Shown piece by piece: positions 13,553 through 27,847 of a stretch of 48,831 bases of DNA. The translations under genes were made by a program, and so were the position numbers. Under the pieces are notes generated by a model that worked only from the letters and a program-made list of their open reading frames with translations, had not been told where the DNA came from and made no database searches. The first letter of the stretch is position 1; each line of letters begins with the position of its first letter. Where the stretch lies: contig SVOQ01000019.1 in the NCBI GenBank assembly GCA_015066345.1, positions 1 to 48,831 on the forward strand, read 5' to 3'. This stretch comes from Oscillospiraceae bacterium (GTDB lineage Bacteria; Bacillota; Clostridia; Oscillospirales; Acutalibacteraceae).

Positions 13553-13650
13553 GTAACGCAATATTATTTTTCATTATTTTTTACATTTGAACAAATGATT
13601 ACAACAATAATTTAAAACAATAAAAAACTAAATTTTCAAGACTACCCGGA

Positions 13651-13697
13651 GCGGGACACAGAACCGTCCCCTGTCTTGTCCCCTGCCTCCTAATTGG
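13651..13697 (+). repeat. GGGACGGTTCTGTG-type repeat, left flank of the second RHS cassette
   Basis: Contains CACAGAACCGTCCCCTG (13657-13673), identical to copies near 19500-19826. Here it forms GGGAC-ACAGAACC-GTCCC, a small hairpin, and is followed by TCTTGTCCCCTG and by a TTGGTC also seen after other copies. It lies just past the stop of the immunity candidate at 13698. Confidence 0.85.
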
Positions 13698-14543
13698 TCA
13701 CTTATTTAAAACTCTTCGGTTAAATTTATCTGAAAAAGGTATATCGAGAAAATAATTTTCATCTACTTTTAGTTCTATGGTTTCAAATTGTTCTATTGTG
13801 ATTTCTAAGAAATCTTCAACATTAACAGGTTTTCTTGAATCATTTTTCAACTCTGAATAGATGGCTTTATTTCCTTTTCTTAAATATATTCCTATATCAT
13901 CATTGTCCATCTTTGTGAAAATGACTGCTTTAAACCCAGATTTTTCTATTTCTTCATAGTCCGAAAACGCGTTGACATATATCACGTCTGACGGTAAAAG
14001 AAGCCCTCTTTCAAGATAAAACTTAAGATTCATAAAAGGACTTACGCTCTCAAAATACTCCACATCATATGTAAAATACAACCCATTTTCCGAAACACTC
14101 CGCGAACTGAAGGTTAAATAATCTGTCCCTGTTATGTGTGAAACCGAAATATCAATATTTTTCTCATCGTCAGTTTTATGATAAGGAAAGAATTCCTGTA
14201 CCAACATATTTTCATTATCTATCATATCTGAGGGAGTATACCCGTCATAAAAATTTATGCTATTGTACCCGATAAACAAAATACATACTGTTATAATAAA
14301 CGCAGTTATGGTAACTACTGTTTTCTTTAATACCGAAACATTTATATCCGTTTTCATAAATAAAAATGCACCAACAATAAAAACAAGAGTTAGCACCATA
14401 AAAGCTTGAGCAGAGTACAAAAAAATCAGCAGATACTCAAATTCAATCATATCAATCTCTTGATACATGCCCAAGCAAAATAATACTATTGACACTACAG
14501 CTGTAAAAATAGAGGTAATAATAAGTTTTTTTGAAGTGCTCAT
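13698..14543 (-). CDS. membrane protein, candidate immunity for the truncated RHS toxin
   Basis: About 281 residues. Three membrane segments are visible (about 7-26, 37-60 and 73-92), followed by a soluble C-terminal domain of about 185 residues with no recognised family. The ATG at 14541-14543 overlaps the RHS stop by 4 bases (ATGA), with GGAGG 11 bases upstream; an in-frame TTG at 14564 is less likely. It is AT-rich and Ile/Phe/Asp-rich, unlike the housekeeping genes here. Its position directly after a polymorphic-toxin tip, coupled by the overlap, is what an immunity gene shows. A membrane location would suit a toxin acting on or through the membrane. Function is inferred only from context. 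Confidence 0.6.
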   Translation of the reverse strand: MSTSKKLIITSIFTAVVSIVLFCLGMYQEIDMIEFEYLLIFLYSAQAFMVLTLVFIVGAFLFMKTDINVSVLKKTVVTITAFIITVCILFIGYNSINFYDGYTPSDMIDNENMLVQEFFPYHKTDDEKNIDISVSHITGTDYLTFSSRSVSENGLYFTYDVEYFESVSPFMNLKFYLERGLLLPSDVIYVNAFSDYEEIEKSGFKAVIFTKMDNDDIGIYLRKGNKAIYSELKNDSRKPVNVEDFLEITIEQFETIELKVDENYFLDIPFSDKFNRRVLNK

Positions 14544-17500
14544 ATATTTAATTGCCTCCACCAATCTAATTTAAATGAATACGCATACGAACCATTATAC
14601 TGAGAATCGTTGGTAACTCTATAAGCCCAATAACCCAACGTATTGTTGGGGTCCAAACCGTTCTCACCCCAAACTTCGTTAAACACTTTTTTTATTGGGG
14701 CAGTTTTTATTTCATAATATGCCAAAGTACAACCAAGAAAAAAGCTCATATATATTGGGGAATAACTAGCGTCACCATGGTAAATATTGTCAGCATTTGG
14801 ATCGATTGTGCCTGTGGGAACATTATCGTTAATATAATACGCATAATGTTCAATCTGCATTTTGTTATCATAATTAAAGGAATTTTTGCTATTTTCCCAT
14901 TCGGTATATCCACCAAAAACGACAGTTAATTTTTCTCTATTATCCTGTTCGTTCTTATATTTGATTTTTATTTTATACATACCGTTTAAATCTCTTTCTA
15001 AATCGCCATAACTCTCAATCGTTTGGTTAACAAGTAGATGCTCAACAAAAGTTTCAAGAGCTAAAATAGCAATTAGCCATTCAATAATAAGTTTAATAAT
15101 CTTTTCTGCGTCCATTCCACCGAAATCTACAAGATTTATCGGATTATTATTACAATATGCAAAAGTATTTGCTCCGTGTACTGTACCGATTTTTATAAGA
15201 CTATCCATATTCAAAAACCTACCGTACAAGGGGTTGTAATAACGTGACTGAAGGTAATAAAGACCTGTGTAATAATCGTAGGAATAACCTCTGTAGGTTA
15301 TGGGTGTGTACACAGCAGCTTCTATTGATTTGTTTATATCCTCAAAACTGCTTTTGTCGAGAAGTACTGTTACGTTACCCCATGCATCGTAGGCGTATTG
15401 TAACACATCTTCGCCGTTTTCGTTATATACGTTTGTTATATCCCCCTGCAAATTTTTAAGGAAGAAAAATGTTTTTGTAGTATTGTCGTCTGCAGAATAA
15501 AGTTCGTAGCCTACGGAATCGTCATTAATGTCAAAGAGCATTTTTACGGTATTTTCCGTGACACCGTTTCCGTCGGTTACGGTGTAGCCGCGTAATTTTC
15601 CGCTTTCCCAAACGTAGTAGTAAGAAGACAGTAGTGTGCTGCTTTCCACATCATAAACCTTCATAGCCGTTCGCATACCCTCGGCATCATAGGTATATTC
15701 GTATCTTGTTCCGTCAACGGTTGCCGAGGCAAGCTGCCTGCCGTTCCATTCGAGGGTTGAATTAACACTTTGCCCCAAAAAGTTAATGCCTGTGAGGTTA
15801 AGCGGGTTACCGATAGAATCGGTTTCAATTGCAGTATCACCATACTTGGTAAGCTTATCCTTCCACACACTGTCATAGGTGTAATCAACCGCTGAAATCG
15901 GTGTTCCTAATTCAGCATCGGAATATTCATACTCAAGCTTCTGAGTAATATTGCCACCCTTGTCATATACGTAAACATAGCTTTTTTCCGTATATGCGTT
16001 GTTTTCACGCACAAGCTGACCCGCTTCGTCATAAACATAGTCGCAAATTGATAAATTTGAAAATTCCTCTTCGGGAATATTAACGGATATATTTGTAATA
16101 TTTCCGTTGGTATCGTAGGTATATAAATATTCCCAATCAAAAAGTGTCTGATTTGAAAGTGTAACACCCTCTGCCGTTCGGGACTGCATACTTACAACGG
16201 GATTGTAGCTGCTCACAAGTGTTGTGGTTTCGTCGGCAGATAAATCCTTATAATTAAAGGCAGTTTGTACATTCAAATATTGCTCGGCTACGTTTGTCTG
16301 AGAGACCTTCGTTGAAACACTCTTTTGATTTTGTCTGCCAAAATAGTCGGATGTTGAAGTAAAATTATATACCGTGTGTTGCCCGCTAAGACTTGAATTT
16401 GTAGTAGTTGTCCCCTTTTCGGCATCTGCAGTAGCCTCTGTTTCACCTTTAGTATACGATAAACCGCCTAAAATTTCAACATATTCTTCATTTTCGTTTA
16501 ATCCGTTAGAATAAAGTAACACATCATCTGCTTCTCCGTTACCGTTAAGCAAGACTATAGTTGTTTCGTCTTCACCGTATCTGATTTCGGAATTTTCTTT
16601 ATTGTTCCTTATAACGGTAATAATGCCGTTTGTATCGTATGTGTATTCATAATCGGCAGTCAAGGTATTATCGGCAGAATAGTTTTTAACAGAAGTGATA
16701 TTACCGCTATTATCGTAAGTATAATTAACATAATCACCGTTACCGTAGGTTATGGTATTAACTCTGTTCCTATTGATACCGTTATCATAATTATAGCTTA
16801 CCAAAGACTGCTGACCAACTTTAACCGCGGAAACATTGCCCCAGGCATCATACTCATAGTTATATGAAAATCCGTTATGGGTTATTGTTTGTATTCTGTC
16901 ATCGTCATAAACATATGCAGTTGACAGTTTGTTGCCGTTACTGAGGTCACTTACGGTGGCAGAAACATTTTTCAGGTGATTCATAGCATCATAGGTATAT
17001 GATGTAACGTTATCATTTCCGTCAGTAGTTGAACGTAATTGTCCGTTTGTCTGGTTGTAGTCATAAAATGTATTTATGCCGTTCATATCTTTTTGACTGC
17101 TATAATAGTTGCCGCTTACATTCTGCGAAACGCTCATTTCTTTTTCACCGTCGGAAATACTGAAAAATGAGCCCTCAGAGGTATTGCTGTAGGAATAGTT
17201 ACGATTACAGCTTACCTTGTCGCAATCGTCAGAGCAATCCCTACATACGCAATTGGTCTGCATACAGCCTGAGCAACTACACTTACCGCATTCAGGACAG
17301 CTTTCGGGTGTACATACAGTTGTACCGTCGTGATTACAATTACAATTGTCTTCACAATATGTGCAAGAACAACCAGTGGAAGTCTCACTATCCGCTCCTG
17401 TATCGGAGGATGAAGATGAATCGGGACGATAAGTGTTTATTAAACTAAAATCATCAAACCAAGCTATTCCGTATTGGCAGATATGAATAACAAACAATCG

Positions 17501-19540
17501 TATTCCGTCATATTCAAAATCAATCTCAAATTCACAACTGTTTTTTTGCCAATTATCATTAAATGGATTTGGGTATAATCGTGTAACGGTTTCCCAATCA
17601 CCCTCCTCTGTTCTGGCTTCAACTATTATACCGCTTGAATATGCCAGATTATCTACATTATGAGTTTTAAAATTCTTGCTTGAAAAACTAAAATGGTATC
17701 CGTCACCTGAAACACCATCGGGAACCTCAATAGTTTGAATCGCATAAAGAAATTGGTCGATATCGCCAATAAGCGCCATTGAGCCTGATATTTCGGTATT
17801 TGAGTCAGCGTCCGTATCGGTATCTCTCACTATTTTTGAACTATCCGAAATATCCCAAGCAGACAAGCCCGTATCAAAGCTACCGTCGGTAACTATATCG
17901 TCACCTTCAACAGCATAATCTGTTTCATAGTCAACGTACAATCCCTCGGTAAGAGTGCCACAAGACATCATAGTATCGCTGAAAGCTCTTGAAACTATAG
18001 TACCGTCGTTATTTATAATTGATATAGTTCTTCCGTATAAATCGAACTGTTTGGTCTGACTAACGTTATTGGCATCGTTAAAAATTTTTTCATATGCGTT
18101 AACACGGGTAACATTCAAACTTCCGCCCAAAGTAGCATCAGTTGAGTTTTCGGAATATACTTTCTCACTTATAGTGCAATTCCCTGCTCCTGAAAATTCA
18201 TACTCCAAAGTATATCCGTCAATATTTTTTACACTTGTAAAATTATCGGTAACGGTGTAATAAACTTTTTCACCATCGGGATAAGTAACTGTTGATAACA
18301 CAGGGACCGACATTCCGTTGATGTTTGCATCGGTATATGTGTAGGTATATTTATAATTGACGCTGTTGTTATTGGCATCTGTTACCTTTACGGCATTACC
18401 GTTAGCGCTAAAAGCCTGTATTGAAGTTAATACATCTTCAGTGTATGAAAAACGGTATTCTCTGCTCGCACCATCAACAATTTTATTAATTGAATAGTTG
18501 TTGTTATAGCTGACAGAAATGGATAAATCAGAGTTTTCTTCACCTGAATTTATTTTAGTTAAAAAACCATATTGATTAAATTCATAGGTTTGATTTTGGG
18601 AATCTTTTATTGTTGCATAGCCAAAATTAGCAGATAAGTTACTTTCGTATGAGGTATTTAACCACAACTCATAGCCTTTTTCGGTCGAAAACACGTCAGC
18701 AACCTCTATCCACTTTCGTTGATTGTTCTCTATAGTGCCACTTTTTTCAAAGTAAACCGTCTGTCCTTCGTCATTGTTATAAAGGATATACTCTTTTCCG
18801 TCAATTAAGCCCGCATATTCTATGGTTTGGTTGAAGTTTGTTTTCCATCCAAAACCATAATATGCAACCCCACCGTAAAATGCAAGATTATATAATGATA
18901 GTGAACCGCCTGCATTGCTGTTGTAATATCTTTTAATCTGTACGGGCATTTTAAGACCCTGTATGCCCGGCTCGTCTCTCTCGATATAAATCTGATTACT
19001 GTAATCATTATAATATACCGTTCCGGCTCTGCCTGCATTTTGAATATGGTAGTCGAATTGTTCCTCTACACCTTGAGTTTCATAATATTCTATTACGAAA
19101 TACGGACATTTATTAGTACTTCCGCTGTATTCAGAAGAAGTAAATGCAACAATATCGTTGCTTGTACTTGATGTTGATGAAGTTTTTAATGCTATACCAT
19201 TATATTTGGTTGTATTTGATGCGAACGCTTCTGTAACATCGTAAACTTCATACTTACCGCTTGAGTCTCTTGTATATTCTCTCATATCAAGAATAACATC
19301 CGTGTCAATATCCGGCTTATCATTATAGGTTACTGTGTTTTCATTCCATTCATCAATTACAGGATATGCAACAACCTGAATTTTAGAGGAATCGCCCGAA
19401 GAAAGTATATAACCGGTATATAGATACAACAATGCATTTTTGATTGCTAAACCATTATTAAAATAATAGTTATTTACAATATCTATGTATGATATGAAAA
19501 TCAGGGGACGGTTCTGTGATTGGGGTTTATCCAAAGACAA
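14540..19540 (-). CDS. RHS/YD-repeat protein, 5'-truncated, with unrecognised C-terminal toxin-like tip
   Basis: 1666 residues in one open frame but with no signal peptide. The frame enters in the middle of a DNRLRE-type domain (KIQVVAYPVIDEWNENTVTYNDKP, about 53-76); the intact neighbour has several hundred residues more. The start would be a TTG at 19538-19540, and residues 8-13 are encoded by a copy of the GGGACGGTTCTGTG repeat. Later parts: N-terminal RHS region, a jelly-roll-like domain (about 540-700), a 16-Cys segment (about 707-778), YD repeats (about 800-1400), and the core end YLQSRYYNPLYGRFLNMDSL...NNPINLVDFGG near 1473. The last 190 residues are a distinct tip starting with a hydrophobic helix (IIKLIIEWLIAILALETFVEHLLV). 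The membrane gene at 13698 overlaps its stop. It could be a pseudogene, or a silent cassette that recombines with the full-length gene. Confidence 0.88.
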   Translation of the reverse strand: MSLDKPQSQNRPLIFISYIDIVNNYYFNNGLAIKNALLYLYTGYILSSGDSSKIQVVAYPVIDEWNENTVTYNDKPDIDTDVILDMREYTRDSSGKYEVYDVTEAFASNTTKYNGIALKTSSTSSTSNDIVAFTSSEYSGSTNKCPYFVIEYYETQGVEEQFDYHIQNAGRAGTVYYNDYSNQIYIERDEPGIQGLKMPVQIKRYYNSNAGGSLSLYNLAFYGGVAYYGFGWKTNFNQTIEYAGLIDGKEYILYNNDEGQTVYFEKSGTIENNQRKWIEVADVFSTEKGYELWLNTSYESNLSANFGYATIKDSQNQTYEFNQYGFLTKINSGEENSDLSISVSYNNNYSINKIVDGASREYRFSYTEDVLTSIQAFSANGNAVKVTDANNNSVNYKYTYTYTDANINGMSVPVLSTVTYPDGEKVYYTVTDNFTSVKNIDGYTLEYEFSGAGNCTISEKVYSENSTDATLGGSLNVTRVNAYEKIFNDANNVSQTKQFDLYGRTISIINNDGTIVSRAFSDTMMSCGTLTEGLYVDYETDYAVEGDDIVTDGSFDTGLSAWDISDSSKIVRDTDTDADSNTEISGSMALIGDIDQFLYAIQTIEVPDGVSGDGYHFSFSSKNFKTHNVDNLAYSSGIIVEARTEEGDWETVTRLYPNPFNDNWQKNSCEFEIDFEYDGIRLFVIHICQYGIAWFDDFSLINTYRPDSSSSSDTGADSETSTGCSCTYCEDNCNCNHDGTTVCTPESCPECGKCSCSGCMQTNCVCRDCSDDCDKVSCNRNYSYSNTSEGSFFSISDGEKEMSVSQNVSGNYYSSQKDMNGINTFYDYNQTNGQLRSTTDGNDNVTSYTYDAMNHLKNVSATVSDLSNGNKLSTAYVYDDDRIQTITHNGFSYNYEYDAWGNVSAVKVGQQSLVSYNYDNGINRNRVNTITYGNGDYVNYTYDNSGNITSVKNYSADNTLTADYEYTYDTNGIITVIRNNKENSEIRYGEDETTIVLLNGNGEADDVLLYSNGLNENEEYVEILGGLSYTKGETEATADAEKGTTTTNSSLSGQHTVYNFTSTSDYFGRQNQKSVSTKVSQTNVAEQYLNVQTAFNYKDLSADETTTLVSSYNPVVSMQSRTAEGVTLSNQTLFDWEYLYTYDTNGNITNISVNIPEEEFSNLSICDYVYDEAGQLVRENNAYTEKSYVYVYDKGGNITQKLEYEYSDAELGTPISAVDYTYDSVWKDKLTKYGDTAIETDSIGNPLNLTGINFLGQSVNSTLEWNGRQLASATVDGTRYEYTYDAEGMRTAMKVYDVESSTLLSSYYYVWESGKLRGYTVTDGNGVTENTVKMLFDINDDSVGYELYSADDNTTKTFFFLKNLQGDITNVYNENGEDVLQYAYDAWGNVTVLLDKSSFEDINKSIEAAVYTPITYRGYSYDYYTGLYYLQSRYYNPLYGRFLNMDSLIKIGTVHGANTFAYCNNNPINLVDFGGMDAEKIIKLIIEWLIAILALETFVEHLLVNQTIESYGDLERDLNGMYKIKIKYKNEQDNREKLTVVFGGYTEWENSKNSFNYDNKMQIEHYAYYINDNVPTGTIDPNADNIYHGDASYSPIYMSFFLGCTLAYYEIKTAPIKKVFNEVWGENGLDPNNTLGYWAYRVTNDSQYNGSYAYSFKLDWWRQLNI

Positions 19541-19826
19541 ACCGCCCCTGATTTTAAAATTTAAGACAACAAAACTTTGATTTATCAGAGTTTACAACTC
19601 AATCATAGAACCGTCCCCTGATTGGTTCTTTCTCAGGAGGTTTACAAAATATTTACTTTTTAGTTTTTTATCGATGGATTTTTAGATCATAAAATGTTGA
19701 AAAGAGGGAAAATTCAAGAGGTTACGACTCAATCACAGAACCGTCCCCTGTCTTAGTCCTTTGCTCATCAATTGTCAATCACAGAACCGTCCCCTGACTG
19801 GTCTTCAATCACAGAACCGTCCCCTG
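19502..19826 (+). repeat. cluster of five GGGACGGTTCTGTG-type repeats
   Basis: Copies of CACAGAACCGTCCCCTG lie at 19604-19620 (one mismatch), 19734-19750, 19780-19796 and 19810-19826 on the plus strand, and inverted at 19502-19518. The inverted copy forms a long hairpin with 19541-19556 (AAAATCAGGGG.CGGTT / AACCGCCCCTGATTTT). Two copies share a longer unit with ACTCAATCA before the core, and most are followed by (A/C)TTGGTC-like bases. The rest of 19541-19836 shows no gene. Similar motifs occur in many Clostridia, often near REP-associated Y1 transposases (from memory); none is seen here. Confidence 0.88.
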
Positions 19827-19836
19827 ATTGGTCTGA

Positions 19837-20520
19837 TTAGTTTTCGTTAAACGGTAGTTTGGTATAATACATACCACGATAATCACAGTAACTCAGAGAA
19901 TATATTAATTCCGGTTGAGATTTTAATTTAAATTTTACATTTTTTATCGCTGTAGCATCCTCAATTAAAAGATACGAAATATTATGTTCACCGCTCAAAT
20001 GATCTTTCCATATTTCTTCGAATAAAGCCTCTGACATTTTTTCATCTGATTCAACAATTACAAAGTCTTCAAATGAATATTTATCAGGCGATAAAACATC
20101 TTTCCTCACGAGCAGTAATAACCTGTCCTGTTCTTTAACTATCAATACAGAATTATCGCACCTTCCATCAGACGAAAACAAAACACCGTCTTCATAAACA
20201 CTACACGGAGAAAGAACAGATAAATCCACATTCCAATTAACTGTTTGATCATAAACCGAAAAAAGAGTATCGCATACTGTATAAAATGATCCCTCAACAA
20301 ACCAATTGTTTGTAGGCAACTCCATTAATTTTACCGAAGGTAAATCATCTTTATCAAAATCTTTCAATTCATTTACAAATATGCTCTCGGTTTTTTCGGG
20401 GGGCGATTGATTCGTTCCGGTATTGTTTTTGCAATTTTTTGCAACAAAGCCAATACCCAAAAGAAGAAAGCAACACAGAAAAAACACCAGAATCACAATA
20501 AATAACTTTCGTTTCATCAT
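19837..20520 (-). CDS. membrane-anchored protein, candidate immunity for the full-length RHS toxin
   Basis: About 227 residues. A basic MMKRK start, one very hydrophobic segment (about 5-27), a Ser/Pro/Glu linker, then a soluble domain of about 180 residues that should face outside; no family recognised. A Cys lies soon after the membrane segment (AKNCKNN), but no proper lipobox is visible. The ATG at 20518-20520 has GGAAGG 5 bases upstream and comes 13 bases after the RHS stop; an in-frame start at 20565 inside the RHS gene is less likely. Its position right after the toxin tip makes immunity the best guess. An external domain would fit protection against a toxin arriving from neighbours. 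Confidence 0.6.
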   Translation of the reverse strand: MMKRKLFIVILVFFLCCFLLLGIGFVAKNCKNNTGTNQSPPEKTESIFVNELKDFDKDDLPSVKLMELPTNNWFVEGSFYTVCDTLFSVYDQTVNWNVDLSVLSPCSVYEDGVLFSSDGRCDNSVLIVKEQDRLLLLVRKDVLSPDKYSFEDFVIVESDEKMSEALFEEIWKDHLSGEHNISYLLIEDATAIKNVKFKLKSQPELIYSLSYCDYRGMYYTKLPFNEN

Positions 20521-20533
20521 AACATCCTTCCTT

Positions 20534-23500
20534 TTAAAACACACACTGAACAGGAGTGTCGTCAATTGGCAAATCAGAAGAAACTAGTGATTGATTGTAC
20601 TCTTCGGCATCCCACACCATCAAATATAAATTACCATCTGGTGCAGCTAAATATGAATCTTTTTGATTACTCTTAGCAACAGCCCAATCACCAGATATTA
20701 TACCACCATTATCTATTGTATCAGAAAACTCATTGCCTATATGTCCATTACAGTTCGGGTGTGAATGAACAATTGCTACAACAGATGGATCAGATAAAAT
20801 TAAACTCATATCAACGGATGCATGCTCGCCTGTAACAGTAGTTGTTAGCCCATATGAATTTGTATCAGGATTGTATGTAATACCTTGCCCATATTCCAAA
20901 TTAGTGACTTGAGTTCGTTCATTTAAATTAATACCTGATGCGATTGCCGCTTCTGTTATAGTTTCATAAGGGTGTGTTTTGATAAAGAAACGATTAATTT
21001 TTATTCTAATTTCACTTATTTTACCAGAAACCCAATTTTTAAAATCTTGCAATTTTCCACAACCACTCGGGTCACTAAACATAATGGGATTATTACTACA
21101 AAAAGCATACATATTGAATCCGATAATATCCCCATTACCATTCAAAGTCCCATCCACATTAATAAACCTACCGATATTAGCATCGTAATAACGGCTCTGT
21201 AAGTAATACATTCCCGTATCTGTGTCGTAATAGTAGCTCCTGTAGCGGATTGGGTTAACATTACCGATATGAACAGATGAAGTAATGGGATTACCCGAAG
21301 CATCTTTTACGGTGCAGTTGCCCCAAGCATCATATTCGTATGACACTTTCAAATTACCATTTGCAGAGTAGAGCCCTAAAACGTCACCTTGTTTGTTGGT
21401 TGTTACATAGTAATAGTAATCACCAATGCTACTTATGTAACGGATAGCCGTAAGTCTACTGTAGCTGTCGTAGAAGAAATACATTTCTTTATCGACTCCA
21501 TCCGAAGCATTGTAAGTGCACTGGTAAGTGAGCAGACCACCCAAGTATTGGTACATCACCTTACCGTTATAATCGAAACCGCCATTTGCATTTTTTATGT
21601 AAATATTCTTTCGGCTTCGTAAGCCCTCGGAATCGTAATAGTAGGTATTGCGGAAGTTATCGTTTTGATAGCGGTAAAGCTCCCTGCCCGTCCACAAAAG
21701 GTCATTACCAAGGTACTTAGTTGGATTACCGATAGCATCGTAGGTAATTGTTTCGGCATCCTCGTAAGTGCTGTTACCATTTAAGTCAACGCCAAAAAGT
21801 ATATTATTCCAGCTTGTAACTTCACCATCGGGGGTTGTTTCTGTTTTTTCACCGTAATTGTAGGTTATGGTTTTTGTTGAAGTTGAAAGAGTGGTAGCTG
21901 AATAGGGATATATAGTAACAGACTCAATATTACCGAGGTCGTCATAGGACCATACCTTTGTCTCGTTGGTAGACTTGTTGTTTTCCCTTGTTAATTGGTA
22001 CAAATCGTCATACTCGTATGAACGGTAAGCCACTGCACCGTCTGTTTTTCTGAAATCCGCACTTTCAGGGTCGGTTGATTTTCTTACACCCTTCTTTATT
22101 GAGGTAATATTACCAACAGAATCGTAATAATAGGTGTAGGTATCGTTACCTATAAACTCAGTACTGAGCTGTGTTGTGCGGTAAAGTTCGCTACTACCCG
22201 TATTACGGTCGGACTTTTTGTACGTATAGTCAACGTATATAGGTGTCCCTAAAGAAATAGTGTATCGATTAAGACGATTAAGACTATCGTAATCATAAGT
22301 CACATTTTCGTTGGAGGGTAAGGTATACTGTGTGGGTAAATTATCCTTAGCATATTTTTCGGATGCGGTATTACCCGAAAGTGCAGAATAACTATACTCC
22401 TGAGTCATTGTCCTGCCGCCCACGTTATTAATCAGCTTAGTAAGATTATTTGCTTTATCATAAACGTTTTCGGTAAATGAAACGGGAGTCCCCGCGTTAT
22501 CACCGGCATACATTGTAACGTTCTGACGGATAGCCCTGCCTAAGGAATCGTAAGCGTAGGTGTATTTGTAGCCCGTACCCGAATCCGTGTGGGATAGCAG
22601 AGTTCCCGAAGCATCATATTTCCATTTATAGGTTGTAGTGCTATCACCTGATTTAACACGTGTGGTTACCAAGCCCAGATTATTGTGTGTGTATTCTATT
22701 TTATCACCATTACCATAGGTTGTCAAATCTAATACACCGTTGTTTTCAGCATATTTATTTTCGGCAAGTAATTGTGAGCCTACGTAGGTAGCATAGTTGT
22801 TTCCGTATTCATCAAATTTAAAGCTATATGTTTCACCTTTAGTTGCCGAACCGAACAAAATGCTTGACATTCTGTTGCCGCCGTATTTACCCGTAAGGGT
22901 TTGGTCGTAGGTATAGGTAACCTTTGACGAACCTGTGGATACGGATTCAAGTCGGGTATAATCGTGTATTTCAGTTCCGTCTGGCTCTTTACTTGTGTAA
23001 TACTTGTTGGTTGTTGTTACACCGTTTGCATCCGTGGTAGTTTTGGGTGCACCCGTAGCCCAATTAAACGTATAGTGGGTTGCGTTGCCGTGCTCATCAT
23101 AATAGTACTTTAAATATGCACCGTCATTTATACCGTAATCCTCACCGCCCGTGTGATACTCCTTGTTGGTTCTTATAGCTAAGGTTGCATCATCGTGCTT
23201 TAATGCATTACGAATTTCGCTTACGGAATCTGTACCGTTTGAGTTATATGCAGTACCCGTTGTAACACCTTTTTCCGACGTTGTATGGGTAAGGTTATGC
23301 TTATTATCATAATGCATAGTGGTAGTATTCCCCAGAGTATCGGTGTATGAGGTCATATTGCCGTTATCGTCATACTCAGCATTGGCTTTTTGCTCTGAGT
23401 TTGCGGTTGCTTTAAGTAAATTACCCTCTTTGTCGTAGGTGTAGGTCTGCGAGGGCTCTTTAACGAGCATTAAGTGGTCAAAGTAAACGAAGTTTACCTG

Positions 23501-26500
23501 TCTCGAATACCTTGGCACTATCTGGAAATACTTGGGTGTATAGGTGCAACCCTCGTCAGGCTTACTGTATTCAAGCGAGAATGGTGTAGAGGCATACTGC
23601 CACGAGGTTATTGTAGTATTAAAGCAGGCGGAATCCTTATACTGCTCAACCTCGGTAACTTTTTTACTTGCATCCGTGCAGTCATAGGTGACCTTAACGG
23701 CTATTTCAAAAAGGGCAATATTTTTAGGCTCGTCGTCACACTCGTCATCAGTACCCTTGTCATCGGTGCCGTTGGTGTGGAAGGTACTGTTCACGGGGTA
23801 ACCCCTACCCCAACCGCTGACAATATACGTATTGTCGGCTTTACCGTCAACATATATTAACTGACTGTAGCCCTTGGCAATATCCGGGTCGCCGGTTATA
23901 CGCACGGACTGAGTGCCGTTTGCCTTTGCTACGGTTGTAATGCCGTTGGTTACGGTACCGTTTGAGGATGTGGTGTAGCTTGTATTAATAGCAGACCAGC
24001 CCGTAGGCAAACCACCGGATGATTTTTCAAAGCTACTGTTTTCAAGGATGTTAAAGGAGTTAGCGGCTGAGCCCGATTCTAACTGTATACAGTCAAAATA
24101 TGCCGTACCGTTCATATTCCTAAAACATAAATATACAAAGGTGTGTGATTCGTCATTAGGTATGGTTACTGTTGCGGTTATTCTTCGCCAACCGTTGTCA
24201 ATGCCCGTGTCGGTAGTTTCGCATATTGCTTCGGAGCGAACGGCTGTATCCAAAGCACCGTCAGTACCAACGGTATTTATCTGTAAATGCGCACCCGTAT
24301 ATTTACTCTCAGCAGTTTTGGTTACGCTACCAACCTTAACATAAGCAGATAAAGTATATGTTCCGCCATTTGTTAAGCCGTCAACCCGTTGGCGGTAATA
24401 TACGTTACCGCTACCTGTAAGCCCCGAATTGGTCAGCTTAAGGGATTTTTTACCCATATATTTTTCAGTTGCAACGCTTGGGGATGAAGCTGAATGAGTC
24501 CAACCCGTGGTGCTCTCCGCATTACCGCCCGTAAGAAGGTTCACAACGCTTTTACCCAACGAGCCCGTTGAACTAACGCGGTTTTTACTGTCAAGGGTGG
24601 TTGTGTCACCGGCTGATGATGTAAAATCGTAGGAACCGGCACCTACCATAGAGCCGTTGCCGTATTTAATCTGTTGTGCTACGGCTCTGCCCGTGTTATC
24701 AAACTGCAGGGTTGTGAGGATATCGTCATCGCCGTCAAGTTTGCCATCTTTGTTTGTATCTGTATCACTTTCGGTTGTTGCGTTATAACTATTAGAGTAA
24801 TGTAAACCGTCAATACCCGCGGAACGTATAACCGTAGTATTGTACTCGGTTCTGTCGAAGGTCACAACCTGACCTAATTTAAAAGAACCGTTTTCATTTG
24901 TACCGAATTCCTTTACCTTATTAACCCTTCTGCCCGTGGCTTTAGAGGTATAGTCAAAGTTAAGACCGTAACCGTCATTTGAAAGGACGTAGTTTATCAA
25001 GCCTTCTGCAGATTCTTCGTAAACGTCTTTTGTTTCATCATTCTGAGCCTCATAAACTATTTTTGAATAAGTGCCGTCATAATATTTTACACTACGCAAA
25101 AATCCACCTGTGGTTGTAAAGTAGATAGTTCTACCGGCATTATCGGTGATTGTTTCGATGTAGTCGGTTTCAACACCGTCAAAGGTATAATATGAAAAGG
25201 TAAATTTATGACCCGCGCCGTCGGTTATATATGCAATTCGAGTTTTAGCCTGTAAACCGATTTCTGTGTTCTCGCTTTTATAGGCTATATGTATATTATT
25301 GCCGTTGGCATCGTAGATGTTGCATAAATTACCCTCAGAATTAAAGCATTTTTGAGTATCGCTTTTATCCGTAATCTTATATGTACAATCATTGTGATTA
25401 AGGGTTAACGTTAAACCTAACCCATCCTCATCCTTGTATACGGTGGTTTCCTTATCGTCCTTGTCCTTTTCCGTAACCTTTTGTATGTAATGCTCCGTGC
25501 CGTCACCGTCGGTGTATACGTAGGGGTAATTATCTTTATTATCACCCGACAAACCGTACTTATCCGAAGTTAAAACCGTTTCCTGTATACTCAGGCGGAA
25601 GCCTTTACCCGGTGTGGTACGTGAGGAGTTTTCTTTGCCCGCAGTTAGTCTTTCATTAGCACAGTAATTGTTAAATACCGCCGAAAGTGCAAGGGGCATT
25701 AACTCACCCGAGCTTGATAAAATAGGCAGACTATATACAAGATTACCTGTGTAATCATTAATATATGCCGTACCCGCGGTATTAACTCCGTAGGTTGAAT
25801 AACTCCAGTAGCTTTCGGTACCCTTGTTATTACGATAATTAACGCTGATGGTAGGATATACAACAGACGTTATGTTATATTCTGCCGATATTATCTGTGC
25901 TCTGCCAACTTTTGATTCATCGTAACCTTTGATAACCACGCCGTAGTTCTTGCCGTTTTCAAACCAGCTTTTAGCGGCACGGGTAATATCAAACAAATAA
26001 TAGTCACCGCAACCATATGTAAGCTCTGCATAGTCAAGGGCGGTTGTTGCAAATTCAGGTTGGTCATTCCACGTTGGTGACAGGGTTGTGTTGTTCCAAT
26101 CCTCAGTTACAGTATGAACCGAAATGAAGCGTTTTTCACTACCTGCATCAACGCTCATCTGATAAATCTGCAAGCTTGCGTTCTGAATCACACAGCATTC
26201 ATCGGGTAATTCGGGTAGATTGAACTTAACGAAGGTACGTGTTTTACCCAAAGTACTGTGACCCGCATATAAATAGTAGTCATACGGATAACTTGCGTTA
26301 GGTGAACTTGCATCAACATAGCAGTCAATTGTATTCTGTCGGTTAATGTCCAGTAATATTGTAGGGTCTATGATAACGGGATAAATCCTTTGTTTATCAT
26401 CGAGCCAATTTTTGTCCGCTGTTATGGTTAAGGTGTATTTGTCACCGTCGGGTGTCAATTCCATTGAAACTAAATCGGAATATACACCGTTTGAGTCCAA

Positions 26501-27367
26501 CATATACGGCGGTGCAATAACAGACTGAGCATTGGTATACCCACTGTCGGTATACAGTACAATTGAGCCGTCCTGTTCTTTTTTAGGATAAAGAGTTCCC
26601 AAATCCATAGTGAATTCAAAAATATTTTTATCCTGTTTCTTTTCTAAAACTATGCTTTCTTTGATTACGTTGCTTGAAATTTCATATTCAAGGTTAACAT
26701 CTTCAAATACATTCTCATACTTAACTGCACCCTTGCGTTTATCCACACCAAGGGCGTTTTCTTCTTCGCTTTTTACTGCGTTGTCACTATTAAGAGAATA
26801 GGTGCTGACTGTATCACCGTTCACAACCTCAGCACTTAAAAGCTCCGATTCCTCCGCAATATCCCCCGAAGCATTTTTCAAGCCATTCTGAGATGTTTTC
26901 GGAGCAAAACTGATTGTCGTATCAGCAATATCAATATCAATTTCATTGCTGCCGTCTTTTGAAATCCTTGAGGGAAATTTAACGGGTATATCAGACGAAA
27001 CGGGTTCGAAAACAGAATCTGTTGAAAAAATCTTTCCTGAATTCTTTTCTTCAATGGTAAAATCGTATTCCACCCATTTACTGTTCTTTTGATAATGTAC
27101 GGGTGATGAATATTTAGCCGCTATATATGAACCGTCGGATTGACGGAAATGCTTGGTATATTCATCACGCAAATCGGTAATTTCATTTAATACTTCAACC
27201 TCAGCTTCCGTATTCTCTGTGTTTTCTGAAGTATCTGTTGGTTGTGTGTCTTCGGTCATTTCAACTTCCTGTATCTCTGCAGCTATGGCAGGATTTGCCG
27301 CCGAGAAAACGCTGAAAAACATTATGGTTGCCATAATTACCGATAATATTTTTATTAACCGCTTCAT
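20534..27367 (-). CDS. secreted RHS/YD-repeat polymorphic toxin with JAB/DUF4329-like tip
   Basis: About 2277 residues. Signal peptide 1-30 (KRLIKILSVIMATIMFFSVF); acidic Thr/Glu linker; a beta region; a DNRLRE domain (about 350-500, with RTFVKFNLPELP and VTEDWNNTTLSPTWNDQP); RHS N-terminal region; carbohydrate-binding-like segments (about 970-1250); YD repeats (about 1260-2080) ending in the core signature YYLQSRYYDANIGRFINVDG and NNPIMFSDPSG. The tip (about 2104-2277) has VVAIVHSHPNCNGHIGNEFSD, GDWAVA and SYLAAPDGNLYLMVWD, the layout of DUF4329/JAB-type metallo-isopeptidase tips: HxHP plus a downstream Ser/Asp. RHS shells enclose the tip and release it after cleavage. ATG at 27367 (or 27376) with AAAGG upstream. 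The immunity candidate follows after 13 bases. Confidence 0.93.
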   Translation of the reverse strand: MKRLIKILSVIMATIMFFSVFSAANPAIAAEIQEVEMTEDTQPTDTSENTENTEAEVEVLNEITDLRDEYTKHFRQSDGSYIAAKYSSPVHYQKNSKWVEYDFTIEEKNSGKIFSTDSVFEPVSSDIPVKFPSRISKDGSNEIDIDIADTTISFAPKTSQNGLKNASGDIAEESELLSAEVVNGDTVSTYSLNSDNAVKSEEENALGVDKRKGAVKYENVFEDVNLEYEISSNVIKESIVLEKKQDKNIFEFTMDLGTLYPKKEQDGSIVLYTDSGYTNAQSVIAPPYMLDSNGVYSDLVSMELTPDGDKYTLTITADKNWLDDKQRIYPVIIDPTILLDINRQNTIDCYVDASSPNASYPYDYYLYAGHSTLGKTRTFVKFNLPELPDECCVIQNASLQIYQMSVDAGSEKRFISVHTVTEDWNNTTLSPTWNDQPEFATTALDYAELTYGCGDYYLFDITRAAKSWFENGKNYGVVIKGYDESKVGRAQIISAEYNITSVVYPTISVNYRNNKGTESYWSYSTYGVNTAGTAYINDYTGNLVYSLPILSSSGELMPLALSAVFNNYCANERLTAGKENSSRTTPGKGFRLSIQETVLTSDKYGLSGDNKDNYPYVYTDGDGTEHYIQKVTEKDKDDKETTVYKDEDGLGLTLTLNHNDCTYKITDKSDTQKCFNSEGNLCNIYDANGNNIHIAYKSENTEIGLQAKTRIAYITDGAGHKFTFSYYTFDGVETDYIETITDNAGRTIYFTTTGGFLRSVKYYDGTYSKIVYEAQNDETKDVYEESAEGLINYVLSNDGYGLNFDYTSKATGRRVNKVKEFGTNENGSFKLGQVVTFDRTEYNTTVIRSAGIDGLHYSNSYNATTESDTDTNKDGKLDGDDDILTTLQFDNTGRAVAQQIKYGNGSMVGAGSYDFTSSAGDTTTLDSKNRVSSTGSLGKSVVNLLTGGNAESTTGWTHSASSPSVATEKYMGKKSLKLTNSGLTGSGNVYYRQRVDGLTNGGTYTLSAYVKVGSVTKTAESKYTGAHLQINTVGTDGALDTAVRSEAICETTDTGIDNGWRRITATVTIPNDESHTFVYLCFRNMNGTAYFDCIQLESGSAANSFNILENSSFEKSSGGLPTGWSAINTSYTTSSNGTVTNGITTVAKANGTQSVRITGDPDIAKGYSQLIYVDGKADNTYIVSGWGRGYPVNSTFHTNGTDDKGTDDECDDEPKNIALFEIAVKVTYDCTDASKKVTEVEQYKDSACFNTTITSWQYASTPFSLEYSKPDEGCTYTPKYFQIVPRYSRQVNFVYFDHLMLVKEPSQTYTYDKEGNLLKATANSEQKANAEYDDNGNMTSYTDTLGNTTTMHYDNKHNLTHTTSEKGVTTGTAYNSNGTDSVSEIRNALKHDDATLAIRTNKEYHTGGEDYGINDGAYLKYYYDEHGNATHYTFNWATGAPKTTTDANGVTTTNKYYTSKEPDGTEIHDYTRLESVSTGSSKVTYTYDQTLTGKYGGNRMSSILFGSATKGETYSFKFDEYGNNYATYVGSQLLAENKYAENNGVLDLTTYGNGDKIEYTHNNLGLVTTRVKSGDSTTTYKWKYDASGTLLSHTDSGTGYKYTYAYDSLGRAIRQNVTMYAGDNAGTPVSFTENVYDKANNLTKLINNVGGRTMTQEYSYSALSGNTASEKYAKDNLPTQYTLPSNENVTYDYDSLNRLNRYTISLGTPIYVDYTYKKSDRNTGSSELYRTTQLSTEFIGNDTYTYYYDSVGNITSIKKGVRKSTDPESADFRKTDGAVAYRSYEYDDLYQLTRENNKSTNETKVWSYDDLGNIESVTIYPYSATTLSTSTKTITYNYGEKTETTPDGEVTSWNNILFGVDLNGNSTYEDAETITYDAIGNPTKYLGNDLLWTGRELYRYQNDNFRNTYYYDSEGLRSRKNIYIKNANGGFDYNGKVMYQYLGGLLTYQCTYNASDGVDKEMYFFYDSYSRLTAIRYISSIGDYYYYVTTNKQGDVLGLYSANGNLKVSYEYDAWGNCTVKDASGNPITSSVHIGNVNPIRYRSYYYDTDTGMYYLQSRYYDANIGRFINVDGTLNGNGDIIGFNMYAFCSNNPIMFSDPSGCGKLQDFKNWVSGKISEIRIKINRFFIKTHPYETITEAAIASGINLNERTQVTNLEYGQGITYNPDTNSYGLTTTVTGEHASVDMSLILSDPSVVAIVHSHPNCNGHIGNEFSDTIDNGGIISGDWAVAKSNQKDSYLAAPDGNLYLMVWDAEEYNQSLVSSDLPIDDTPVQCVF

Positions 27368-27376
27368 ATTTGCCAT

Positions 27377-27847
27377 CCTTTCTTAACTTTCTTTTTCTTG
27401 TTTTTCAACTGTCATAAATGCATTTGTGTTTAGTAATAAATCGGCACCAACCCCTTTTGATTTTTGGTTTCACTTATATATGACTGTTTTCGCAAAATAC
27501 TTCACAATTTTTTAAAATTTTCTCATTTTCGTAGCAATGTACAAAAATGCCCCGTCTGTTTGTGCAAAATAGATAGGGCATTAAAATACTAATATAAAAT
27601 TTATTTAATCCTTGATTCTTTCCAACTATAGTAGAGATCGATACCGAAAAAATCAAACCAGACCCAGGTAGGTTTTATATTAATTTTGCCAAAACACAAA
27701 CCTATTCCCCTATCCTTCCTTCTTTTCTCCGTCTTGATAACTCCATATAAAAAGTTTATAGTTGTTTTTACTTTAGTGAAAACTGATTACAACGAATATT
27801 TCAGGCAATACTTTTATTGACAAATTAATAAACCGAGGAGTGCCTGA
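27377..27847. other. intergenic region between RHS and sigG, no gene
   Basis: About 470 AT-rich bases between divergent genes. One hairpin is seen at 27546-27582: AATGCCC / GGGCATT, strengthened by an inner TCT/AGA pair, with T- or A-rich flanks on both sides. The only open frame is 60 codons, with no ribosome site and no recognisable protein. A promoter for sigG could not be assigned with confidence; a sigma-F type would be expected for this gene. No good promoter was found for the RHS gene either. Confidence 0.6.

What the first reader, a model, noticed from the sequence alone, without database searches (positions are those of the whole stretch)
13651..27367. Tandem RHS toxin locus with a second, headless cassette bracketed by short repeats
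A complete secreted RHS protein (20534-27367) and its immunity candidate (19837-20520) are followed on the same strand by another RHS gene (14540-19540) that lacks the signal peptide and the first several hundred residues but keeps the whole YD-repeat core, a different tip and a coupled partner gene. Copies of one short repeat lie on both sides of the second cassette (13657 and 19502-19826). Orphan tips usually carry only a short piece of core; here most of the shell is kept. This could be a silent cassette able to replace the active tip, or the remnant of a duplication.
Basis: partly seen in the sequence, partly recalled or inferred. Interest (0 to 1): 0.78.

Follow-up and report, generated by a model that had tools for sequence, protein, structure and literature searches.

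The report
REPIN-bounded orphan RHS toxin cassette
A bacterium carries a beheaded second toxin gene with its likely antidote gene, cut off exactly at a small mobile repeat; related bacteria show toxin tails and antidote genes joined to the same repeat again and again, which suggests that the repeat helps to move and stack them.

Summary
RHS1 (20534-27376) with partner P0004 is intact. RHS2 (14540-19540) is open over 1,666 codons but lacks a signal peptide. A 71%-identical relative in G013 has about 340 more N-terminal residues; RHS2 homology stops at 19498, the edge of a 130-bp inverted-REP element (REPIN, 19497-19626). The repeat is dispersed: 20 exact copies here, present in 16 of 22 genus genomes, and one cluster holds a REP-associated tyrosine transposase (RAYT) gene.

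A wider pattern appears instead. In REP-bearing genomes 13 of 21 scorable headless RHS pieces start at a REP, against 0 of 15 full-length genes. REPINs are polarised (RE behind 3' ends, LE before 5' ends). A unit [toxin tail, immunity gene, REPIN] is duplicated in G013. RHS1 tip, P0004 and REPIN are 97-100% identical in G016, whose syntenic flanks are 69-83% identical. The 14-kb island is absent from the orthologous G016 site.

Best reading: REPIN-ended toxin-immunity cassettes, possibly moved by RAYT. The RAYT role is inferred, and passive decay around REPINs remains a serious rival.

The parts
20534..27376 (-). RHS1: full-length secreted-type RHS protein, 2280 aa, CBM_4_9 domain, RHS repeats, Rhs core end, DUF4329 tip
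19837..20520 (-). P0004: partner (immunity candidate) of the RHS1 tip; 3 of 684 nt differ from G016:C16
19804..19830 (+). REP (RE type) just behind the P0004 stop
19629..19830 (+). two patches matching the two edges of the REP/RAYT insert on contig C30 (95.9% over 122 nt; 89.6% over 77 columns), the first with 39 nt of C30 flank
19497..19626 (+). REPIN: about 130 bp, LE at 19497 facing RHS2, RE facing P0004; hairpin-forming
14540..19540 (-). RHS2: headless RHS gene; homology to relatives begins at 19498-19495, first 14 codons are REPIN sequence
13698..14564 (-). P0003: partner (immunity candidate) of RHS2, overlapping it by 25 nt; stand-alone relatives in G015 and G249
13657..13673 (+). REP behind the P0003 stop; no LE partner seen
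13623..27761 (.). island absent from the orthologous spoVAE-sigG site in G016:C62; edges approximate (possible 10-bp direct repeat TGATTACAAC at 13596-13605 and 27784-27793, read by eye)

Best explanation
RHS2-P0003 is an orphan, 5'-truncated RHS toxin-immunity module of a different RHS lineage from RHS1, held in a slot that ends at REP elements of a RAYT/REPIN family. In this genus a unit [toxin 3' part, immunity gene, REPIN from RE to LE] is copied within genomes and exchanged between species, and is placed next to the LE of an earlier REPIN; polarised arrays of headless toxins and immunity genes result. Shown: the junctions, the polarity, one duplicated unit, one interspecies block ending at LE, and empty sites. 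Inferred: that RAYT, acting on single-stranded REPs by one-ended or composite transposition, makes the joints; that P0003 is an immunity gene; and that such modules persist for immunity against kin while the beheaded toxin is silent for lack of an export signal.
For: RHS2 homology ends at the REPIN edge. 13 of 21 scorable headless pieces in REP-bearing genomes start at a REP, 0 of 15 full-length genes do. Of 33 full REPINs, RE faces a 3' end in 31 and LE faces a 5' end in 27. G013 has an 84% copy of [toxin tail, immunity gene, REPIN] that starts just behind one LE and ends at the next. RHS1 tip, P0004 and REPIN are 97-100%, 681 of 684 and 125 of 128 identical to G016:C16, and sequence outside LE differs. 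A RAYT gene of the right family lies in a REP cluster. Empty sites for the window island in G016 and for the C30 insert in G013 and G018.
Against: No RAYT activity or movement was seen. 8 of the 21 pieces do not start at a REP, and in 6 of the 13 that count the alignment runs into or through the REP, so the joint is not exact; without those 6 the contrast is 7 of 15 against 0 of 14, P = 0.006. Genomes without exact REP copies (G001, G002, G004) also have headless RHS pieces, 12 of them. C23 joins a toxin tail to an RE without an immunity gene, against a strict fixed-LE unit. Polarity could come from an insertion preference behind 3' ends. No RAYT was found in G013, G016-type or G017 REP loci above cut-off except a 57-position match in G016.
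Confidence: 0.5

Rival explanations
1. Passive decay. REPINs insert behind genes in dispensable regions; later deletions run from the REPIN into old RHS genes and leave headless remnants that stop at the repeat. Nothing is mobilised by RAYT.
For: A relative with an intact 5' end exists. REPINs also sit between ordinary genes such as those around G005:C2 and G005:C17. P0003 lies behind RHS2 as expected for an old intact locus.
Against: RHS2 shows no frame break over 1,666 codons. The other side of the REPIN is never the lost RHS head in the pieces read here but another gene's 3' end. Decay does not explain the copied unit in G013 or the recent interspecies block that ends at LE.
Confidence: 0.25
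2. Homologous or homology-facilitated recombination alone. REPINs and RHS cores are dispersed homology; unequal crossing-over and transformation with DNA of relatives build the arrays, and RAYT has no part beyond spreading REPINs.
For: RHS1 is a mosaic: its first ~350 residues are 99% identical to G016:C51, its tip to G016:C16. REP-less G001 and G002 carry orphan pieces with 92-99% core identity. Published models rest on recombination (PMC2935791, PMC5361080, passages).
Against: RHS2's 5' joint to the REPIN is not homologous to anything, so at least one illegitimate step is needed; RHS1 and RHS2 share too little homology.
Confidence: 0.19
3. A silent cassette kept to replace the RHS1 tip, or a remnant of a local duplication (second idea).
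For: Tandem arrangement on one strand with different tips.
Against: 26% protein identity, longest shared exact tract 15 bp.
Confidence: 0.03
4. Assembly artefact: contigs joined wrongly at a repeat.
For: Five other contigs of this assembly end within about 1.1 kb of a REP (C18, C22, C23, C31, C36).
Against: The same architecture occurs in other assemblies (G005, G013, G017, G020), and the P0004-REPIN neighbourhood recurs in G016:C16. The longest exact matches of the window REPIN to other held stretches of this genome are about 31 nt.
Confidence: 0.03

Closest known systems
Orphan rhs-CT/rhsI modules and C-terminal tip displacement (enterobacteria)
   Same: Headless RHS pieces with linked immunity genes behind a full-length gene (PMC2935791, PMC3967940, passages)
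   Different: There the orphan keeps core sequence identical to the main gene and recombines with it; here RHS2 belongs to another RHS lineage, keeps nearly the whole shell and starts at a REPIN
RAYT / REPIN elements (REPtron)
   Same: Inverted REP pairs, REPs around a REP-associated tyrosine transposase gene, mostly one such gene per genome here; REPINs and RAYTs as in PMC3116915 and PMC6006769 (passages)
   Different: The REP lacks the GT[AG]G tetranucleotide given there for most classes; REPIN units travel with toxin-immunity cargo; that use was not in the passages seen
Orphan immunity-gene arrays (V. cholerae T6SS; S. aureus esaG)
   Same: Stacked immunity genes at the 3' side of a toxin locus (PMC5361080, PMC9484751, passages)
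   Different: Those arrays are explained by homologous or illegitimate recombination without a mobile repeat at the joints
Integron cassette arrays
   Same: Works-like resemblance only: oriented gene cassettes separated by a short element with inverted ends
   Different: No integron integrase over cut-off in this genome (best 48.8 bits, cut-off 265); the candidate enzyme is an HUH transposase

Membership tests
RHS/YD-repeat polymorphic toxin | RHS repeats and Rhs-associated core end over curated cut-offs, in RHS1 and RHS2 | tested here: met
   PF05593 51.4 and 69.4 bits (cut-off 22), TIGR03696 70.8 and 64.7 bits (cut-off 32.5)
RHS/YD-repeat polymorphic toxin | export signal at the N-terminus | tested here: inconclusive
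   by eye only: present in RHS1, absent in RHS2; no signal-peptide predictor was run
RHS/YD-repeat polymorphic toxin | toxic tip neutralised by the linked partner | not testable with these tools
   RHS1 tip matches DUF4329 (36.1 bits, cut-off 28.6); RHS2 tip and both partners have no significant family
Classical orphan rhs module that feeds tip switching | core homology with the main gene long enough for recombination | tested here: not met
   longest exact tract with RHS1 15 bp
RAYT (REP-associated tyrosine transposase) | curated family model passed | tested here: met
   C30 gene: NF047646 81.5 bits (cut-off 80), PF01797 56.2 bits (cut-off 23). Only this copy was scanned with NCBIfam
RAYT (REP-associated tyrosine transposase) | gene flanked by REPs | tested here: met
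   G000:C30, G005:C9, G015:C32, G020:C41
RAYT (REP-associated tyrosine transposase) | REP carries the GT[AG]G tetranucleotide | tested here: not met
   absent from the REP consensus by eye; PMC6006769 passage says classes 2.6 and 3 also lack it
REPIN | two REPs in inverted orientation forming a hairpin, dispersed in the genome | tested here: met
   31-nt arms, z = -7.13 as single-stranded DNA, many copies
REPIN | mobility by RAYT | not testable with these tools
Integron | integron integrase | tested here: not met
   no match over cut-off in this genome
Integron | attC sites | not tested
   no attC search was run

The most novel reading that the evidence does not exclude
A RAYT/REPIN system works as a cassette platform for antibacterial warfare genes: it captures toxin tails with their immunity genes, stacks them in one orientation between REPIN ends and spreads them between loci and species, much as an integron does but with an HUH single-strand transposase and no integrase.
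Probability: 0.33. Interest if true: 0.85.

Novelty: new variant of a known kind. Interest (0 to 1): 0.6.

Why it matters
How Rhs tips and immunity genes enter a locus is unsettled: published models use core homology, circular intermediates or illegitimate joining without a named enzyme (PMC2935791, PMC5361080, passages). Here many joints fall on a defined mobile repeat that has a candidate enzyme, which makes the question directly testable. It would also give RAYT/REPIN elements, whose benefit to the host is described as not formally elucidated (PMC6006769 passage), a possible cargo role.

Tried and rejected
Silent tip-switch cassette and recent duplication: rejected on DNA. The repeat as a private bracket of this locus: rejected, it is dispersed. 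Integron: no integrase over cut-off. Phage cargo: weak RHS matches in 5 phage records, none covering 80% of the query; no relative among viral contigs. A hidden 5' part of RHS2 elsewhere in the genome: not found. Promoter scan: 32 promoter-like sites against 30.3 in shuffles, so not used. A strict one-ended model with LE always fixed: not adopted, because C23 joins a toxin tail to the RE without an immunity gene.

Rows dropped and choices made. For the 13 of 21 count I read by eye, after seeing the data; a piece counts if its 5' homology limit lies within 65 nt of a REP or in one. I left out seven rows in REP-bearing genomes: six pieces whose 5' end lies at a contig end (G013:C17 third, G013:C13, G017:C58 second, G017:C62 third, G020:C41 first, G008:C77) and one spurious match inside a REPIN (G000:C18). 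In six of the 13 the alignment runs into or through the REP (G013:C17, G013:C4 first, G017:C17, G017:C2, G017:C62 first, G020:C41 second). One search also gave a figure with 0 of 12 full-length genes, a miscount of mine: 14 of the 15 lie in genomes with exact REP copies. One search gives the mended figures. The polarity count uses full REPINs only (33); partial ones were left out. The chance figure (7e-29) assumes an assumed REP density and independent pieces, and is not used.
Full report
What is there. The window is the whole of contig C26 (48,831 bp) of a 2.33-Mb genome in 48 contigs. The finding's features are present. RHS1 is a 2280-aa protein with a signal-peptide-like start (by eye), a CBM_4_9 domain, RHS repeats, an Rhs core end and a DUF4329 tip. 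P0004 follows it. RHS2 is an open frame of 1666 codons from a TTG; it begins in the middle of a DNRLRE domain and carries RHS repeats, the core end and a tip without a family match. P0003 overlaps its end by 25 nt. Neither partner has a significant family match, so 'immunity gene' is an inference from position and size, here and for the relatives below.

The two RHS genes are not copies of each other. They align at 26% amino-acid identity. The longest exact DNA tract they share is 15 bp; codon-shuffled controls reach a mean of 13.2 and a maximum of 19. RHS2 has a much closer relative in G013, 71% identical over residues 15-1475, as a 1992-aa open frame with about 340 more N-terminal residues and a signal-peptide-like start; G020 has a 42% one. 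Between RHS2 and its G013 relative dN is 0.19 and dS 1.98; dS that high is saturated, so I read from it only that neither gene looks decayed.

Where RHS2 was cut. Homology to relatives ends at window 19495-19498. The REPIN begins at 19497: about 130 bp, 31-nt inverted arms, DNA hairpin z = -7.1. The first 14 codons of the ORF are REPIN sequence. The missing N-terminal part was not found elsewhere in the genome: the relative's first 345 residues match RHS1 in two pieces, plus one hit at E = 0.16.

The repeat family. AGAACCGTCCCCTG has 20 exact copies in this genome and 0 for the reversed control. It occurs in 16 of 22 genus genomes and in 33 of 250 family genomes. On C30 copies surround a 254-aa gene that passes NCBIfam's REP-associated tyrosine transposase model (81.5 bits, cut-off 80). 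A similar gene lies among REPs in G005:C9, G015:C32 and G020:C41; most REP-bearing genomes of the genus gave no such gene over cut-off, and these assemblies are incomplete.

Association with headless toxins. I compared 5' homology limits of RHS pieces with REP positions over the held loci. In REP-bearing genomes 13 of 21 scorable headless pieces start at a REP; 0 of 15 full-length genes do (Fisher P = 9e-5). The scoring was by eye and after the fact; without six pieces whose alignment runs into or through the REP it is 7 of 15 against 0 of 14, P = 0.006. In this genome both scorable pieces do: the window's RHS2 and the 135-aa headless ORF on C36. Twelve pieces in G001, G002 and G004, which have no exact REP, do not, so REPs are not needed for orphan formation. 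Several ORFs read into the REP, with ...EPSPDF near the N-terminus or NQGTVL at the C-terminus.

Polarity. For 33 full REPINs the gene facing RE shows its 3' end in 31 (1 shows a 5' end, 1 has none near), and the gene facing LE shows its 5' end in 27 and its 3' end in 6. The window fits: P0004 3' end, RE, LE, RHS2 5' end. Insertion preference behind 3' ends could give part of this.

Units that move. In G013:C4 the array behind the full-length RHS gene holds a second copy of the last ~65 toxin residues, the immunity gene and the REPIN, 84% identical over 1,223 nt; it begins just after the LE of the REPIN before it and ends at its own LE. Between this genome and G016:C16, P0004 differs at 3 of 684 nt, the RHS1 tip is 97-99% identical in 150-nt steps and the REPIN is identical at 125 of 128 aligned bases, while the core falls to 65-89% just behind the core-tip border; syntenic flanks of the two genomes are 69-83% identical. 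Outside LE the two genomes differ: here RHS2, in G016 an 86-bp piece that reads as RHS repeat (best blastx E = 3e-4, none for the reversed control) and a second REPIN. So the exchanged block is tip, immunity gene and REPIN, and it stops at LE. In this genome about 175 nt more REP-rich sequence lies between REPIN and P0004.

Empty sites. In G016:C62 the spoVAE-side flank (to W 13622) lies directly next to the sigG flank (from W 27762), so the whole 14-kb island is missing there. SigG passes its NCBIfam model; SpoVAE lies 2 bits under its own but passes Pfam's SpoVAC/SpoVAEB. A 10-bp direct repeat at the borders is possible but unproven. On C30 the insert (REPs, immunity-like gene, short toxin-tail-like stretch, RAYT gene) is absent in G013 and G018, where the flanks are continuous; in G016 the same interval holds a different small secreted-protein gene and a degenerate REP seen by eye; in this genome the insert is flanked by a 167-bp, 99.4% direct duplication. 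Window region 19629-19830 is made of two patches that match the two edges of that C30 insert, one with 39 nt of C30's own flank. On C18 and C23 a 254-bp stretch, read as a toxin tail, is 99.6% identical and on C23 ends 5 nt from a REP; both copies begin at contig ends, so this case is weaker.

How it most likely works. Shown: joints at REPIN ends, polarity, a duplicated unit, an interspecies block, empty sites. Inferred: RAYT, of the HUH single-strand transposases, cuts at one REPIN end and a second REP or surrogate site, so that the DNA next to a REPIN, usually the immunity gene and toxin tail in front of RE, travels with it and lands at another LE. Decay around passive REPINs and homologous recombination between REPINs or RHS cores are the main rivals. 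RHS1 itself is a mosaic, with a G016:C51-type head (99% over about the first 350 residues) and a G016:C16-type tip, so core recombination also operates here. RHS2 is probably not delivered, for lack of an export signal; P0003 may still protect. No function was tested.

Literature. Passages (not whole texts) of PMC2935791, PMC3967940, PMC5361080, PMC3482391 and PMC9484751 describe orphan tips, displacement and immunity arrays by recombination; passages of PMC3116915 and PMC6006769 describe REPINs and RAYTs. Searches of the held library for RAYT/REPIN with toxin, Rhs or immunity terms and for Rhs with cassette or H-repeat terms listed no paper whose title or abstract start joins the two; the lists were capped at 15-20 rows, and the library holds open-licence PMC papers only.

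Verdict.

Noticed in passing
20534-21061: The RHS1 tip matches DUF4329 (36.1 bits, cut-off 28.6) and holds an HSHP...SGD stretch like that of JAB/JAMM proteases (the motif is recalled; Prok-JAB matches only at E = 0.13).
   Followed up: partly
RHS2 residues about 724-793 (window about 17160-17370): A cysteine-rich stretch, 16 Cys in 70 residues, sits in the middle of the RHS2 shell; 6 of 15 other full-length RHS proteins (G001, G006:C41, G007, G013 twice, G020) have 9-16 Cys in 70, RHS1 at most 4.
   Followed up: partly
L045 1737-1903 and 3932-4098 (G000:C30): A 167-bp, 99.4% direct duplication flanks the REP/RAYT/immunity insert; G013 has the stretch once. Too long for an ordinary target-site duplication.
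   Followed up: partly
G011:C53, G008:C39, G016:C4, G000:C30: The neighbourhood of the same conserved genes (ParA/MinD-like and a membrane protein, named by eye) carries REP clusters or small extra genes in four species and none in G013 or G018: a possible chromosomal hotspot.
   Followed up: partly
26303-27352: RHS1's head is 97-99% identical in DNA to G016:C51 while the rest of the core is about 55-97%: a recent head exchange separate from the tip exchange.
   Followed up: partly
L060 and L043 (G001), L056 (G002): Genomes without exact REP copies carry tandem RHS pieces with 92-99% identical core stretches, which fit the published core-recombination model.
   Followed up: no
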